From positions 1 through 64,000 of the forward strand of contig JALLLT010000024.1 in the NCBI GenBank assembly GCA_025266875.1: a DNA stretch of 64,000 nt, in the 5' to 3' direction. The translations under genes and the position numbers were made by a program. The stretch comes from Fennellomyces sp. T-0311 (Eukaryota > Mucoromycota > Mucoromycetes > Mucorales > Lichtheimiaceae). Of this stretch, positions 56,385 to 64,000 are shown in pieces (within the stretch, counting starts at the first letter, position 1; the number at the start of each line of letters is the position of its first letter). A model generated the notes under the pieces. That model did no database searches. It worked only from the letters and a program-made list of their open reading frames with translations, and was not told the origin of the DNA.

Positions 56385-58520
56385 AGATGTGATATGGTTG
56401 CTAGTGATGCCCTATACTCGCGCAAGAACTTCACACTTTATATACGAATATTTTCGTGCCACATTTTATCCTCAGCAATAATGCACTGATATAGTTGATG
56501 CAAGTGGTCGACGCTCTACATACAGCAAATGTGCGCCACTACTCAGCATCAGAAAAGTATACTGTCAGGTTATGCAGTGAAGAGCGGGGACTACATAAAG
56601 ATATTTCAGGCACGTATTATTGTATCAGTATTATAGTCGTTAGCGAAAGAGTGCAATATGCTTGAAATGTACTAGTTACATACGTATCGCTCCAGTGAAT
56701 AGATAAATGTCAGCGCCCATGATAACAGCAAATATTGTGTGAGTACATGATCACTCTATAAATAAATGATGATATACGTAAGTGAGTGTAAAAGCGGCGT
56801 TGAAGACGGCGGCGATAGAGCAATTGCATATTACCTGGCATGACGACATATCAGGTGTGTAGCAGAAGTAAACACTACCGATGTCAAAAAGTGACCCGCC
56901 ACGAAACATGAGCAAAGTTACACACGATCGATCACGCACCACATTCAAGCAAGTTTAATTAGCTTGAAGGTCACGATCACGCCATCATGGTGGAGAGGTT
57001 CCGGGGCATGCTATTATTACCGCCACACATTTATAAGCTCCCTTTCAAACATTCCACGGACTTTTAGCTTCCACAATCGATAGTAGAAGTATTAAGCAAT
57101 TCAGGCAATTTTCTTGCCACCAAAGTTTCAGTATTTTTTGGCAGTGGCACATTTACTTCTGAAGCAGACTCGCTCCGTGATCATCTAGGCTATTTCATCA
57201 TTGTTCTTGTGTCGACGCTCCGACGAAATAGCGTCCATTGGTTGCGTTATTGCTAGCCTTTTGGCAGAAATAGAATATACTTTGCATTCTTAATTTCTGA
57301 AGATTCACGTACGTGGTCAACTATACATATTGTACCCTCAACTAAGACCAGCATTGATTAGCTATATTAATATGTAATCCCGTTTGGGGTGCTTCCTAGC
57401 AGCTTTGAGGATTAATTTGGGCAATAACGTATGCATAACCTGTTACAATTTAATAGATTCAATATCGGGAACATGCATTCTAAATATTCTGCTCTTTATC
57501 AAGATTCACATCTAGCACATAGGAAAGCTTCTTAATACTTAATCAACACGACATTATCAGCATGGAGTGCTTCCTTTTTTACGTACTACGTACACCATGA
57601 CCTCTTGTTTATTAAAAAATACGAGTATAGCCGATAATGTATCTGGAATACACTAATTAAAGGGATCAATGTTATCACGTACGCCGACAGCACCACTCAG
57701 TAAATCTTTTTCTCGGCAGAATACTGCTATACTCATTGCTTGCGAATGCCAAGAGAACGATTAGTGGCGATAGCCTATCCTGCGGCGCACAGTGGCCACG
57801 CATTACGTATGTACACAATGAGCCAAGTGTTCAAATGAGGAGGACAGTACGTACATACGGAATACGTACTTGGTGAAGTTAATACGCGGTAACAGGGGTT
57901 CTTGCTATCAAATTATGCAGACGGTATTGTCAATAATAACGAAAGTGAATCTGTATATGCATTTTGGTTGAAGCAGTAACACAAATGGACGCAGAGGGTA
58001 TTCTATTACCAACGACTCTGCAACCGTTGAACTTCAACTATTACGTTCTTCCCTTTTAGTATGACTATCAGCTACTGATTTTAAAAACTGTATACACAAA
58101 TGTGCTTTGGATTACCTTGTCAGACATATTTCGAATGTTCAATTTAAATGGCTTAAAATTTTTGGACAGACAATGGTCCGAAATTGGCGACTTAGTACGA
58201 CGTGGGCTTGGATCCCTTAAATAAAAATAGCTCCAAAAGGTCTGATACTGCCACAATTGAAAAATATAGAAGCTAAAATCTGTTTAACCTTTTTTCTACC
58301 GATTATAGATTGGCGTGGCTTTGACTACGGGGTGAAAGAATCTGGTGTTTCTTTTCGTTCAAAGTTACTTCGCCAAACTAGGAACCATTCAAATAGTGAA
58401 ATATTCCACAAGGCTTATTTAATAAGGGTTTCAGGCGGGACTTCCTGCATAAGCAATTAGTTTAAAACCAAGGAATTTACTACATACAAGGATACTTTAT
58501 TTGGTTCGTAATTATCAGAC
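56385..58520. other. Intergenic up to the retrotransposon, no gene seen
   Basis: About 2.1 kb of AT-rich DNA. A plus-strand patch near 58310-58460 (WRGFDYGVKESGVSFRSKLL) looks slightly coding-like but is isolated. Confidence 0.45.
56436..56444 (-). promoter_or_regulatory. TATA box of WWE-like mini-gene 2
   Basis: Minus-strand TATATAAAG, a consensus TATA box, 52-60 nt upstream of the first ATG. Confidence 0.6.
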
Positions 58521-58942
58521 TGTCGACAACGTTGTAACGAGTAAAGTCGGTTTGTGCTACCACAGTTTCCTAATCCAATTTTTCCATCAGATTTTTATCT
58601 TTTTTTCATCATATTCTTATCTTCTTTTTATCTTATTTTTATAATACTATACACATATATTCAACTTCTTTTTATCTTTTATTACTACTTCTTTATCAGT
58701 GTGTAACCGCTGAACAAGTATAAATAGCCCGATTTTGCAGAGCGAATAAAGCAGTTAACTTATACTCATTGTTTACACACAAACATTAGGCAAAGCCTTG
58801 ATATCTTTTTGATCTGAATAAGCCAAAAGTGCTAAGATCTATTATTTTTGTTAACTCACCCAGCCTACAAACCTTTTTTTTTTTCACTCTTAAACTTATA
58901 TTGTGAACTACCGTTCACTCTCCTACAAGAAATACTCTATCA
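58521..58942 (+). repeat. Presumed 5' LTR
   Basis: Boundaries are inferred: a TG start at 58521 and a CA end at 58941-58942, just before the primer-binding site. Inside is a TATA box (GTATAAATAG, about 58718-58727), then AATAAA at about 58746, as expected for the promoter and R/polyadenylation region of an LTR. The 5' edge could be tens of bases off because no 3' LTR is available for comparison. Confidence 0.55.
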
Positions 58943-58944
58943 AT

Positions 58945-58962
58945 TGGTGCTCACTACAGGGG
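58945..58962 (+). other. Primer-binding site
   Basis: TGGTGCTCACTACAGGGG lies two bases after the presumed LTR end. A TGG start is what pairs with the CCA end of a tRNA; the remaining bases would pair with its acceptor and T arms. Which tRNA cannot be named here. Confidence 0.55.
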
Positions 58963-59081
58963 AAAGCAAACATATTCCCAGTATAAACAACAAAGCTATT
59001 CAAAAACAAAAAAAATCGTAAAACACAATTCCACTCTACACTTTTAACCCAACGCTACCAAGCAAATTACTACCCGTCAAA

Positions 59082-60530
59082 ATGTCTATCCACAGCCAGG
59101 AACAAGTTATTACCGCTGATGATTCGAACAGAATCATCGACTCGACCGAAGGAAGTGAGATTCAAGAGGAACATCTGTATTCATCGGAAGTTTCGTCTCA
59201 CTCTGGAAAACGTTTGTCCGAACTAACTGTGTTGGATACGCGCCCTATCTACCCACCTCAAAGCCTTAGTTTTGGAGGCTATGAGAACGAGAACTTTATC
59301 AAGTTCCGAAGCGAGTTTCGCCAATATATGTTGTTGGCAGGAATCTTTGGTAACACCGCTCGGCAGATTCAAGTTCTGCATGCCATCTTGAGAGGACCCG
59401 CTCTTGCCTTTTTCGAAAGGAAGATCTTCCCACGTCTGGAGAGCAAAACTGATGCCGCAGTACGCACACTTGAAGATGTGCTAGAACTACTCGAGATCGA
59501 GTATGTAACCGATCATGACATTCTGCGAATGAAAGAAGAATTCAGTCGCATGACTCAACTTGCTGATGAAAGTCCACGCCAATTTCTCGGTCGTCTTCGA
59601 GAAGCATTGGATATGGTTAACATGGAAGACCAGGACGCCTTGTATACACGATTTAAGCAAGGACTATTGCCGGAAATCCGAGCTCATTGTTACTCTACCG
59701 GATTTTTGGAGCACAACCAATTCTTACAAGCCGCTGATGGATATTGGTTTGCGCACCGAGAAATGTTAAAGCGCAAGAATATGACGCCTCGTCATTATTC
59801 CGACGCACATGATTTATTGGCTACACAACTTGCCGATCTTAATTCGTGGCACGAAAATCGAGTTGTTAATGGCAACATTTCTGATGAAGAAATCAGCTTC
59901 CTTTTACAACAAGGATTTAAAATGACAGATGCTGTCAAGTATTTGGCTGCCAAAATGGCAGAAACGAACTTGAAAGGAATGTACTTTCAACATTGGCCCG
60001 AACGCGAAAACCGTGAGACACGTGCCCCACGTCAGCAACAACAGAATCGTTACCAACCCCAGCGACAGCAAAATCGCTACAATAATAACTACCGTCAGAA
60101 CAATGGACCACGACCCAACAACCAAGGGTACCGTCAAAATGATCGAGGAAACACTAACGATCAATGGGCAAGCCAGGATCATGAGGAAGCACAAGGCAAT
60201 CAGTCGCCTGTGAATGGCCAGAGATATGACAATCAGAATTCCGGATATGGTCAATATCCTAGAAAGGCTCCCCAAAACGAACCATTTTATCACTCCCGAA
60301 GACATGAATTTGGACGCAACAAATCGGTTCCTTTAGATAAGCGTTTTACTAGCATCAACGAGCAGACAGGTGCAATTGAGTACGACTACAAAGGTGCTTG
60401 GAAGGATGCCGATGAACGACTAGAACGTCGAGAACAAAACACTGAACGATGGAATCCGCCTGTGCAACGATTTGAAAATGACTATAGAAGAAATTTCAAC
60501 AATGGCACTCAAATGCATTCAAAAAACTAA
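59082..60530 (+). CDS. gag: Gag polyprotein of the Ty3/gypsy element
   Basis: 482 codons. The middle has the retrotransposon gag/capsid pattern: FIKFRSEFRQYMLLAG, LRGPALAFFERKIFP, LELLEIEYV, RMTQLADESPRQFLGRLREA and FKQGLLPEIRAH. The C-terminal third is Gln/Asn/Arg-rich (RQQQQNRYQPQRQQNRYNNN) and probably replaces the CCHC zinc knuckle, which is absent. A UBA-like stretch (ISDEEISFLLQQGFKMTDAV) precedes it. The frame ends at TAA 60528-60530 directly after the slippery heptamer A AAA AAC, so most ribosomes end here and a fraction shift into pol. Confidence 0.9.
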   Translation: MSIHSQEQVITADDSNRIIDSTEGSEIQEEHLYSSEVSSHSGKRLSELTVLDTRPIYPPQSLSFGGYENENFIKFRSEFRQYMLLAGIFGNTARQIQVLHAILRGPALAFFERKIFPRLESKTDAAVRTLEDVLELLEIEYVTDHDILRMKEEFSRMTQLADESPRQFLGRLREALDMVNMEDQDALYTRFKQGLLPEIRAHCYSTGFLEHNQFLQAADGYWFAHREMLKRKNMTPRHYSDAHDLLATQLADLNSWHENRVVNGNISDEEISFLLQQGFKMTDAVKYLAAKMAETNLKGMYFQHWPERENRETRAPRQQQQNRYQPQRQQNRYNNNYRQNNGPRPNNQGYRQNDRGNTNDQWASQDHEEAQGNQSPVNGQRYDNQNSGYGQYPRKAPQNEPFYHSRRHEFGRNKSVPLDKRFTSINEQTGAIEYDYKGAWKDADERLERREQNTERWNPPVQRFENDYRRNFNNGTQMHSKN

Positions 60531-63500
60531 ATGGCCCTGCCGCCTTTAGCGGTCGGCAGAACGGTCACCCACAAACAAAATCCGCTAGCTTAAATGCATA
60601 TATAATCAACAATGATAAAGACTCACAGTCTGACCAATATTTAGATGGATCAGATAATGAGTATTATACTAACAATTTCGCTAACATAAAGGAACCAGAG
60701 CCACATCAACAATATGAGTTGTTCACAGCTCAAAAACAGGATCGTCGCGATAAACAATTACGTTCGAGAGTAGTACCATACCAAATCGAGAAACCAACAA
60801 AGCCAAAGAAACAAACAAAGAAAGATCAAAAGATCCGATTTGTAGAACCCGTAGAAAACATTTTACCTTTCGCAGAACCAGGACCAAGCGCAATGCACAC
60901 TCAACCACAAACTAGCAATCAGCCAGAACGAAGCGTTGCAGTACCTTATAACCCGGATACCGAAATGATGGATATAGAAAATCAAACCCCATTGAAACAT
61001 CCAAAAGACAAAGGAAAAGGAAATGCAATTCGAAAAGCACGGTCTAAACCCAAGGTTGAATACGAAATTGCAAAGGATGCCATGAATCGAAGAGCGAACA
61101 TTACGTTTAAAGAATTGGTGAAGTTGTCCCCAGCACTGAGAAGAGAGCTGCATGCAGCAACCTCAATAAGAAAAAAGCCACAAACACTCAACCTTTTGGA
61201 CACAAGCAAGGATGAAATTGATTCGACAGCAGCATATGCTACCTTTTATGTAAAAGGACAAGCCATAAGAGGATTAGTTGATACTGGAGCTGCCAGATCA
61301 TGCATGTCCAAGGAGCTTTGTGATCGACTACAGCTGAAAATCGAAGAACCATCAAGAGTTGTATTTACTCTAGGAAATGGAACGAAGCAGGCCGCACTTG
61401 GAACAATACACAACTTACCTGTTCATGTGAATAATCAAGTGTCAATTGCAGCTGGTGTGGAAATTATTGCTACTTGTCCAGTACCCTTAGTACTTGGCAC
61501 CAACTGGCTAAGCACTGGCGACGCATCTATCAATTTTAAGACAAAGGAATTGATAGTACACCAAGGAAACAGAATGGCTAAAACTCCAATTACTTTTGTC
61601 AAACAATCTGTCAGCCAAATGCTACGTCCACAACTCCCCCCAGACTGGTACAAAATACGGGAATCCCCATCATCAGAGAGTGATGAGGAAATGGAATCAT
61701 CAGATGACGGACAAGAATCACAAGGAACTGATAGTGATGACGAACACTCAAGCGACAATGAATCAGAAGAAACTGATGAAACGGAAGAATTGACCAAGGA
61801 GTCGAAAGAAGTCGAATTCTTCAAGCTCGAGAACGATGAGTCTTTAGAAGGAGCTATAACAGTTGTACGCGAAGAAGACGAAGAAATTCAATATCTGATC
61901 AAGGCAGCAAGAGAAATCATAATACCAGAAAACACTCAACGGAGAATGCGATGCCGAGGACAATTACCAGAATACACGGATCAGGAAACATACCTCTTTG
62001 AACCCCTGATACAGCCATCAATACACGACTGGCGATTTATCGATGGCACACCGATAATCAGAGATGAAACTGATTTTACCATATTTTTTACAAACCCACT
62101 ACCAGAACCAAAGATAATACCAGAAGGGACATTACTTGGTGTGTATGAAGGAGATATTCTCGACGGAAGGAACGTTGAAACACGAGCCTACGATATCAAC
62201 ACCGATATGTTACAAAGAAGGGATATCACCATTGCAGAATTTACGTTCATGCATGCATCCATGGATGTTGGAGATGGTCCTCAACCATACCCAGAACATA
62301 CAACCAACCGCTATAAAGTACGAATAGTGGAAGTGGTTTCGATACCTCCTAAAGACAGTATCGCCGTAAAAGGAAGATTACTTATACCCCCAACGTCGAA
62401 ACTGAGATTCGTACCAAAGTACGGAGAATCTTCTCAGGACCTACGCCAGCATTCTTTCGAAGGATCTGATATACTGCCAGGAGAAACATCTTTTTGCATT
62501 ACAATTAGCAACGCTTTAGATACAAGTTTAATAATGGTGCCACCGAAACTAATCGGAATCTACCTTTCTGAGGAAGAGATCCATGCCGAAGAATTATCCA
62601 ATTCTTTCAAGATTCATCCAGTACCACTATCTGAAGAACGAAAACGAATGATCCCACCACCAGAGATAGATGATCCAGAAATCGTCAAGGACTTCTATGA
62701 GTTGATTCGTGCTTATCAAGATGTTTTCAACTGGGATGGTGAAACCGTTGGAAAAACAGACCTTTTGACCTTTAAACTCGATGTTGGTGATGGACCACCG
62801 ATTAGATCTCGCCCATATCGGCTATCTCACGCAGAATCACAAATAATGAAGCAAGAATTGGAAAAGCTACACCGAATGGGAATCATCCGTCCTAGCAAAA
62901 GTCCATGGGCATCTCCCGTCCTTCTTGTTCGAAAGAAATCCGGAAAATGGCGATGCGTGGTTGACTTGCGCAAGGTTAATAGCCGACTTAAAGGCGACGG
63001 TTACAGATTGCCTCGCGTAGAAGATTTATTCGATAAACTTGGAACAGGAAGATACAGAAGTTCAATCGATACAACACATGCATTCCATGTCGTACCGATT
63101 GAAGAAAGCAGCATCCCAATTACCGCTTTTGTCACAGACACAGGTGCTCTTTGGGAATATACCAGAATGGTCCAAGGATGTAAAACGAGTGCATCCTACA
63201 TGCAACGTTTAAGTGATTTGGCATTCAAAACAGTGGTGGATATGCAAGCAGCCGTCATATTCGTCGATGACGTATATGTGTACAGTAAAACGGCCCGTCA
63301 ACATTTGTTCCATCTACAATGTACATTCCAGGCCTTACGAAATGGAGGACTTACCATATCACCATCAAAGACCTTTTGTTTCAAAAAGGAATTGACCTTT
63401 TTGGGGCACATTTTCACAGACGAAGGAATCAAACCGGATAACAGCAAGATCCAGAAGATCAAGGATATCCCAATTCCAAGAACGAAAACGGAGATTAAAT

Positions 63501-64000
63501 CATTCTTGGGACTCGCCTCTTATTACCGCCGTTTTGTACCAAGATTTGCAGCCATAGCAAGGCCATTACATAATCTTACCAAGGATGGATTACAAACATG
63601 GTCGCCAGCAGCAACAGAAGCCTTTAATAAGTTGAAGGAATGTCTGACTACTCCACCAATTTTAACATTACCGGATTACGAGTCAAAATCGCCAATTATC
63701 CTCCAAACGGATGCATCAAAAGATGGACTAGCTTGCATAGTTTGTCAAGAAGATGAAGAAGGAAGAGAAAGAGTGATAAGCTATTTATCCAGAGCAACAA
63801 ACAAGGCCGAGTCAAAGTACAGTGCAGTGCGATTGGAGTTATTATGTGTCTATTGGGCATGTTGCAAGTTACGCCCAATGCTATATGGACGCAAATTCTT
63901 ACTCGAGACAGACAATACCGGAATTGTTGGACTTATCACTTCATCTGACAAGCTAACAGGTGCTGTCGCACGTTGGGTTATGTACCTAAGTGAATTCGAT
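60488..64000 (+). CDS. pol: Pol polyprotein (protease, linker, reverse transcriptase, RNase H start), partial
   Basis: Open frame in the -1 phase relative to gag, from after TAG 60485-60487 to the window end without a stop (about 1170 codons). A basic spacer is followed by the retropepsin motif LVDTGAARSCMS (about 61275-61310) and LVLGTNWL. A Ser/Asp/Glu-rich stretch (61660-61800) comes next, then two similar beta-rich linker segments. Reverse transcriptase begins about 62780: RSRPYRLSHAE, GIIRPSKSPWASPVLLVRKK, KWRCVVDLRKVN, the catalytic FVDDVYVYS, FLGHIFTDEGIKPD and SFLGLASYYRRFVPRFA. RNase H starts at about 63700 (LQTDASKDGLACIV). No ATG in a good place, consistent with expression by frameshift. 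Confidence 0.93.
60521..60559 (+). promoter_or_regulatory. Programmed -1 ribosomal frameshift signal between gag and pol
   Basis: Slippery heptamer A AAA AAC (60521-60527) lies in the correct gag phase (TCA AAA AAC), immediately before the gag TAA. After a 9-base spacer comes a GC-rich hairpin: CTGCCG (60537-60542) pairs with CGGCAG (60554-60559), with additional inner pairs possible. Slippage by -1 enters the pol frame exactly (AAA CTA AAT GGC). Confidence 0.85.

What the first reader, a model, noticed from the sequence alone, without database searches (positions are those of the whole stretch)
60521..60559. Textbook -1 frameshift cassette in a fungal Ty3/gypsy element
The gag stop is preceded by A AAA AAC in the right phase, followed at 9 nt by a 6-bp GC stem, and pol is open only in the -1 frame. 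Many fungal gypsy elements use a single fused frame, and Ty3 itself uses +1, so this arrangement (as in several retroviruses) is notable for this lineage. The tight spacing, phase and stem make chance unlikely.
Basis: partly seen in the sequence, partly recalled or inferred. Interest (0 to 1): 0.78.

Follow-up and report, generated by a model that had tools for sequence, protein, structure and literature searches.

The report
Fungal retrotransposon frameshift, split-off integrase
A fungal mobile element carries a well-supported ribosomal "slip" signal with a conserved RNA pseudoknot, which is an ordinary trick, but its integrase has been cut off into a gene of its own, which is unusual for this kind of element.

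Summary
The -1 frameshift cassette is real. A_AAA_AAC (60521-60527) sits in phase at the gag stop; protease-RT-RNase H is open only in the -1 frame. All seven copies of the junction found in the genome keep it. Two other families (RT about 61% and 42% identical) keep heptamer, spacing and structure. This kind of signal is not rare: published fungal Tf1/sushi elements mostly use -1 shifts (PMC10085805, passages).

The unexpected part lies past the window's end. The shifted product ends after RNase H; integrase is a separate ORF with its own ATG, 109-334 nt on in 17 of 18 copies read. None of 26 RT/integrase pairs of this clade share an ORF, against 47 of 72 other gypsy pairs here. Seventeen public relatives, five named Rhizopus, also stop just after RNase H. 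A 19-base motif recurs in the spacer of four of six families. How integrase is expressed is not shown; I favour a transcript of its own or independent initiation.

The parts
58533..58942 (+). 5' LTR (about 410 bp, TG...CA), preceded by target-site duplicate ACGT 58529-58532
   Evidence: identical to the 3' LTR of the same copy, which lies beyond the window; ACGT on both sides
58945..58962 (+). primer-binding-site-like stretch TGGTGCTCACTACAGGGG after the LTR
   Evidence: the start of the same stretch also occurs upstream of gag in L051 of family E; the tRNA was not identified
59082..60530 (+). gag ORF (482 aa), stop TAA 60528-60530
   Evidence: no Pfam match
60521..60527 (+). slippery heptamer A_AAA_AAC in gag phase
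   Evidence: identical in all 7 copies found and present in families B and C
60533..60536 (+). pseudoknot stem 1, lower helix, 5' strand GGCC (partner GGTC 60563-60566)
60537..60542 (+). pseudoknot stem 1, upper helix, 5' strand CTGCCG (partner CGGCAG 60554-60559)
   Evidence: four of six pairs changed on both sides between families
60547..60552 (+). pseudoknot stem 2, 5' strand TAGCGG in the apical loop (partner CCGCTA 60582-60587)
   Evidence: kept in three families, one pair G-C in A and B, A-U in C
60554..60566 (+). stem 1 3' strands: CGGCAG 60554-60559, bulge AAC 60560-60562, GGTC 60563-60566
60582..60587 (+). pseudoknot stem 2, 3' strand CCGCTA
60527..64000 (+). pol in the -1 frame: protease, RT, RNase H; runs past the window to a stop at contig C100:64079-64081; no integrase
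61244..61513 (+). aspartyl protease domain (PF13975)
62927..63412 (+). reverse transcriptase domain (PF00078)
63599..63997 (+). RNase H domain (PF17919/PF17917), up to the window end

Best explanation
The site is a working-type -1 programmed ribosomal frameshift signal of a recently active Ty3/gypsy retrotransposon of a fungus that I infer to be mucoralean. Ribosomes translating gag pause at an H-type pseudoknot whose core helix begins 5 nt after A_AAA_AAC. A fraction slip back one base and continue into protease-RT-RNase H, so that Gag exceeds Gag-PR-RT-RH. Shown: phase, overlap, spacing, conservation and covariation. Inferred: that slippage happens, and its rate. The shifted product ends just after RNase H. 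Integrase is encoded by a separate downstream ORF with its own ATG. It is therefore expected to be made apart from Gag-Pol, from an RNA of its own or by independent initiation, and to enter the particle in trans. Shown: separate ORFs throughout the clade members examined. Inferred: the route of expression.
For: Heptamer, phase and overlap. Seven copies keep the junction. Families B (L045, L046, L048) and C (L050, L052, L053, L054, L056) keep heptamer, spacing and pairing. Family-level count in my hand register: 48 of 48 cells paired, 6 of 16 pairs changed on both sides. Tool count on the unedited alignment (6 rows, 4 distinct): 48 of 48 cells for the two main helices; covariation score and percentage paired reached by 0 of 500 shuffles; slid versions 15-42% paired. 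Recent activity: identical LTRs in 4 of 5 copies examined (the fifth differs in a T run) and 4-bp duplicates in 5 of 5. Separate integrase: 0 of 26 clade RT/integrase pairs in one ORF versus 47 of 72 others. ATG opening integrase after the spacer in 17 of 18 copies read, in frames 0, 1 and 2 relative to RNase H. Integrase domains in the separate ORF. Seventeen public relatives end 3-6 residues after the RNase H LSR/MSR motif. One RT clade, support 99/99.
Against: No frameshift product or RNA was measured. Only three families carry the cassette, so the pseudoknot rests on six changed pairs. Weaker measures of the same counts: pairs with a change on both sides were reached by 16 of 500 shuffles and 5 of 500, and further pair types by 327 and 236 of 500; the tool says these are not probabilities. 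With the lower helix, MAFFT leaves family B one column out of register and 2 of 64 cells fail. Plain folding prefers two inner loop pairs to stem 2, and no pseudoknot energy was computed. Families D and E have gag and pol in one frame. L055, fetched where a family C junction was expected, had no heptamer. For the split: the 26 pairs are near-copies from a few families, not independent events; two of the three family B copies used for the frame argument have interrupted pol; in family C no stop lies in the integrase frame within the spacer, so a shift is not excluded there; other, unrelated public pols without integrase also appear. Near-identical copies differ by single-base indels, so some frame breaks may be assembly errors.
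Confidence: 0.85

Rival explanations
1. Gag and pol are joined by splicing of a small intron across the junction rather than by frameshifting; the heptamer and stem are incidental.
For: No RNA data were available here. Public gene models sometimes place an intron at such a junction; PMC10085805 (passages) calls the one in Tcn1 a wrong annotation.
Against: The heptamer is exact and in phase in three families at the same spacing, with pairing kept by compensatory change; an intron needs none of this. I did not scan this junction for splice sites.
Confidence: 0.04
2. The gag/pol frame difference is an assembly indel or a dead element.
For: In three of the six comparisons with the window copy (L011, L012, L013) indels outnumber substitutions.
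Against: All 7 copies found and two diverged families have the same frame relation. Gag, pol and integrase are all open in at least two copies.
Confidence: 0.02
3. Integrase is joined to RNase H after all, by a spliced intron that removes the stop and spacer.
For: Phase-compatible GT/AG pairs exist in each of the 11 copies tested, and family D has a GTAAGT donor 44 nt before the stop with a compatible acceptor.
Against: Copies of families A, B, C and E have no consensus donor in the 240 nt before the stop; the consensus-like donors of F have no phase-compatible acceptor. Donors further upstream, and a leader spliced straight to integrase, were not tested.
Confidence: 0.12
4. Integrase is made by reinitiation after the RNase H stop on the full-length RNA, without an RNA of its own.
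For: The ATG has a purine at -3 in 5 of 6 families and G at +4 in 10 of 11 copies; spacers of B, C and D hold no ATG.
Against: Spacers of E and F hold 6 and 3 ATGs and that of A one, inside the motif; over all families ATG counts are near expectation. Spacers reach 334 nt.
Confidence: 0.3

Closest known systems
-1 frameshift Gag-Pol junctions of fungal Ty3/gypsy elements: Tf1/sushi elements (PMC10085805, passages) and Verticillium VdLTRE2/3/4 (PMC3441728, passages)
   Same: Ty3/gypsy of fungi with pol in the -1 frame of gag
   Different: pol of VdLTRE2/3/4 is described with integrase and a chromodomain; here pol ends after RNase H. Sites and structures of those elements were not compared here.
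Retroviral gag-pro -1 signals with A_AAA_AAC and an H-type pseudoknot, such as mouse mammary tumour virus (recalled, no call)
   Same: same heptamer, short spacer, H-type pseudoknot
   Different: host and protein order; here stem 1 carries a 3-4 nt bulge and stem 2 pairs a conserved loop hexamer
Saccharomyces Ty3 (PMC5009743, passages)
   Same: Ty3/gypsy order of gag, PR, RT, RH (recalled)
   Different: Ty3 shifts +1 without standard re-pairing; its integrase is part of the polyprotein (recalled)
Foamy virus expression of Pol from its own spliced RNA (recalled; PMC7828637 seen only in a search listing)
   Same: enzymes made apart from Gag
   Different: there the whole of Pol is separate; here only integrase is, and its RNA is unknown

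Membership tests
-1 programmed ribosomal frameshift signal | X_XXY_YYZ heptamer in the zero-frame phase inside a gag/pol overlap | tested here: met
-1 programmed ribosomal frameshift signal | short spacer (about 5-9 nt, recalled), then a stable structure or pseudoknot | tested here: met
   5 nt to the core of stem 1; covariation in three families
-1 programmed ribosomal frameshift signal | measured shift product | not testable with these tools
   no expression data
Ty3/gypsy LTR retrotransposon | LTRs, primer binding site, target-site duplicate | tested here: met
   the primer tRNA was not identified
Ty3/gypsy LTR retrotransposon | order PR-RT-RH-IN along the element | tested here: met
Ty3/gypsy LTR retrotransposon | integrase as the last domain of one pol polyprotein (usual, per PMC3248453 passages) | tested here: not met
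   0 of 26 clade pairs in one ORF; separate ATG
Chromovirus (Tf1/sushi and kin) | chromodomain at the integrase C terminus | tested here: not met
   Pfam scan of the 493-aa integrase ORF of L012 gives no chromodomain at E <= 0.1
Element of Mucorales | host identity | tested here: inconclusive

The most novel reading that the evidence does not exclude
A clade of Ty3/gypsy elements in Mucorales has split integrase off from Gag-Pol and makes it from a subgenomic RNA of its own, started by an internal promoter that contains the conserved spacer motif CGGGANGTCNTTAAANTCA. Integrase dose is thus set by transcription while the ratio of Gag to PR-RT-RH is set by frameshifting, so the enzyme must be loaded into particles in trans.
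Probability: 0.35. Interest if true: 0.8.

Novelty: new variant of a known kind. Interest (0 to 1): 0.58.

Why it matters
The frameshift cassette adds a covariation-backed pseudoknot signal from a fungal element and can be assayed at once. The split integrase matters more: LTR retroelements are understood to deliver integrase as part of Gag-Pol (recalled). A clade that does not do so would let one ask how integrase is counted and loaded, and whether fusion to RT is needed at all. The conserved spacer motif gives a concrete handle for that test. Annotators may also be calling such pols integrase-less or broken.

Tried and rejected
Rejected: assembly error as the cause of the gag/pol frame change (same in 7 copies and two diverged families). 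Rejected as a general route: a fixed second frameshift or readthrough into integrase, because the integrase ATG lies in different frames relative to RNase H between families (A 1, L021 0, D 2) and among three family B copies (0, 2, 1), two of which have interrupted pol. Disfavoured: a conserved intron joining RNase H to integrase.

Led nowhere: viral contigs and genome-contig scans gave no relatives, so no Rhizopus DNA was seen and the cassette could not be checked there. The 18S rRNA search, meant to test pairing with the spacer motif, did not complete. The motif has no complement of 9 nt or more elsewhere in the L012 stretch. A tRNA scan of the window and seven loci found none (bacterial code). 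The only Rfam match in 58000-64000 is RF01417 at 21 bits against a cut-off of 105, taken as chance. A PDB sequence search with gag gave one non-significant hit.

Row choices: one search used 87 of 139 RT rows and 85 of 150 integrase rows (0 of 24 against 45 of 56); one search repeats it with all rows, and its figures are the ones quoted. Of the 33 integrase rows at 39% identity or more, pairs 26; the other 7 had no RT partner of their own. In one search the integrase ATG was chosen by a pattern that I wrote from the families already seen; L008, the window copy, gave none because its integrase start is broken. The tree used 24 chosen loci and public proteins with at least 200 aligned residues, the group of other public proteins cut to 18. 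L057, L058 and L059 were fetched but not analysed.
Full report
WHAT IS THERE. The window's last 5.5 kb hold the left part of an LTR retrotransposon on the + strand. A 5' LTR of about 410 bp (58533-58942) starts after a 4-bp duplicate ACGT, and a primer-binding-site-like stretch follows. Gag runs 59082-60530 (482 aa, no Pfam match). Pol is open in the -1 frame from 60488 and holds aspartyl protease, RT and RNase H. The window lies in contig C100 of an unnamed 45.6-Mb genome in 182 contigs. Nearest named relatives are Circinella minor for integrase (48% over 74% of the query) and Rhizopus arrhizus and R. delemar for pol (41-45%), so I infer a mucoralean host; this was not tested further.

THE CASSETTE. 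With 14 codons drawn from gag's own, an in-phase AAAAAAC occurs in 0.0029 of draws. A second in-phase heptamer, AAATTTC at 60491, also lies in the overlap; its conservation was not examined.

COPIES AND RELATIVES. A 301-base query finds 7 copies, six at 100% and one at 99%; all 7 read the same over heptamer and stem. An RT query finds 139 matches (the tool calls such counts lower bounds). Junctions were then read in family B (RT 54-62%, C117 in pieces; L045, L046, L048) and family C (RT 41-42%, C130 in pieces; L050, L052, L053, L054, L056). These eight all have AAAAAAC with pol in -1. Two further stretches did not: L047, at a family B relative, has no gag ORF in the stretch read, and L055, at an expected family C junction, has no heptamer. 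Families D (L049) and E (L051) have one open frame across gag and pol; for F only the open-frame length of 1535 aa in one copy suggests the same.

THE STRUCTURE. From the three families I derive: heptamer; 5-nt spacer; lower stem of 4 bp; a 3- or 4-nt bulge on the 3' side; upper stem of 6 bp; a loop that ends in TAGCGG (A, B) or TAACGG (C); and its exact complement CCGCTA or CCGTTA downstream. In my hand register 48 of 48 family-by-pair cells pair, and 6 of 16 pairs differ on both sides between families. On the MAFFT alignment as it came (6 of the 9 junctions, 4 distinct rows) the two main helices give 48 of 48 cells. The covariation score is reached by 0 of 500 shuffles, pairs with a change on both sides (5) by 16 of 500, and further pair types by 327 of 500; versions slid by 1-3 columns pair in 15-42% of cells. 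With the lower helix 62 of 64 cells pair, the misses being family B, one column out of register. The stem-2 complement appears in shuffled downstream sequence in 0.002-0.007 of trials. Folding alone gives stem 1 with z of -2.2 to -2.9 (6 of 200 shuffles as good) and prefers two small inner pairs to stem 2, as programs without pseudoknots must. These data make a frameshift pseudoknot the best reading; the shift itself is inferred.

HOW COMMON IS THIS. PMC10085805 (passages) states that Tf1/sushi elements outside fission yeasts predominantly use -1 frameshifting; PMC3441728 (passages) reports pol in -1 in Verticillium gypsy elements; PMC5009743 (passages) says +1 and -1 are less skewed in fungi than in animals. 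Gao et al. 2003, which PMC10085805 and PMC3441728 cite, is not held. So a -1 junction in a fungal gypsy element is a new member of a known kind.

THE SPLIT INTEGRASE. Pol stops right after RNase H, 81 bases past the window end. Integrase (H2C2 and rve domains, 493 aa in copy L012) is a separate ORF. In 17 of 18 copies read the RNase H stop is followed by 109-334 nt and then an ATG that opens integrase; the exception is the window copy. Starts: MEDKQYDALKYYLETLEYP (A), MDNSYYEALKYY (B), MDEQQYNDLKHYL (C), MDPAKLSHLQYYL (D), MDPVKLSLLQYYL (E), MDPTKLSLLQYYL (F). Relative to RNase H this ATG lies in frame 1 in A, 0 in L021 (B), 1 in C, 2 in D, 0-2 in E copies, 2 in F; three family B copies show 0, 2 and 1, though two of them have interrupted pol. 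This speaks against a fixed frameshift or readthrough. In family C no stop lies in the integrase frame within the spacer, so there a shift cannot be excluded by stops alone. Pairing every RT match (139) with every integrase match (150) gives 98 pairs; in the clade (integrase identity of 39% or more) 0 of 26 share an ORF, in the others 47 of 72 do. The 26 are near-copies from six families, not 26 independent events, and some of the 25 other pairs in different ORFs have stops inside their matches. The window copy's integrase is itself broken by private single-base indels; copies with gag, pol and integrase all open exist.

BEYOND THIS GENOME. A pol search (RT-RNase H part, candidates by whole-protein length, so fused pols are eligible) lists the best 120 of 343 hits. 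Of the first 18, 17 have no integrase domain; the exception is a Cordylochernes record. All 17 end 3-6 residues after the RNase H LSR/MSR motif. Of the other 102 listed, by my count of the table, 82 carry the rve domain; the 20 without it include a Rhizopus record that is cut short (P0060) and pols of other lineages, so lack of integrase in a record is not by itself a mark of this clade. In an RT tree one fork, support 99/99, holds the 13 split-integrase loci used, the 17 integrase-less proteins and P0060, and none of the 10 fused loci used (midpoint root, and the tool warns of long branches elsewhere). Three of the four best integrase hits (P0002-P0004, unnamed) start with MD in the same place; P0001, Circinella minor, starts inside. 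That search could not have found fused pols, since it limits length. Families A/B branch first, and C lies with D, E and F (90/82, not starred), so the cassette may be ancestral and lost by fusion in D-F; this is inference, and the Rhizopus junctions are unknown.

A CONSERVED SPACER ELEMENT. CGGGANGTCNTTAAANTCA with up to one mismatch has 25 places in the genome (22 exact) and none for the reversed pattern. Comparing by hand, 23 lie within about 250 nt upstream of an integrase match, one lies after an RT match at a contig end, and one (C157:74071) stands alone. It occurs in families A, B, E and F, is doubled in L021, L032 and L033, and is absent in the C and D copies read. Since A and E contain an ATG inside it, a DNA or promoter role seems likelier to me than a scanning or IRES role; nothing here proves that. 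No consensus donor was found in the 240 nt before the stop in families A, B, C and E, while D and F have some.

PRIOR REPORTS. Ten paper searches were answered. Those aimed at a separate integrase and at retrotransposons of Mucorales showed no description of a separate integrase ORF in the titles and abstract starts listed (searches gave 0 papers; the others list only part of longer hit lists, such as 25 of 159). Passages of PMC3248453 (12 of 18 places) say that integrase is usually last in pol of Ty3/gypsy and that the Rhizopus oryzae element clusters with nothing else; the passages shown of PMC2699053 and PMC11943222 do not mention a split. Subscription papers and preprints are mostly not in that library.

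VERDICT. The finding is confirmed and enlarged: a covariation-supported -1 pseudoknot signal, ordinary in kind, in an element clade whose integrase is no longer part of pol. The second point lifts the interest; its mechanism is open.

Noticed in passing
contig C100:64082-64220 (beyond the window), and other copies: Non-coding spacer between the RNase H stop and the integrase ATG with the motif CGGGATGTCATTAAACTCA at C100:64099-64117; 25 places genome-wide, 23 just upstream of integrase matches.
   Followed up: partly
window 58529-58532 and four other copies: Target-site duplicates are ACGT in 4 and CCGT in 1 of 5 copies examined, suggesting a sequence preference of integration.
   Followed up: partly
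contig C100:66048-67001: An extra ORF of 318 aa (MADNNREQ...) before the 3' LTR, found in 8 copies and otherwise only as one weak 51-residue match; no Pfam family above cut-off.
   Followed up: partly
L065 (C94:753300-756100): A distant gypsy element (RT about 31%), outside the clade in the tree on a long branch, also seems to have integrase in a separate frame with a start like MDYPYYLSLYFY; a second copy on C155 also has RT and integrase in different ORFs.
   Followed up: no
window 60491-60497: A second in-phase slippery-type heptamer, AAATTTC, in the gag/pol overlap.
   Followed up: no
L008-L014: Some near-identical copies differ by single-base indels with no or one substitution, which looks like assembly error in short runs.
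   Followed up: partly
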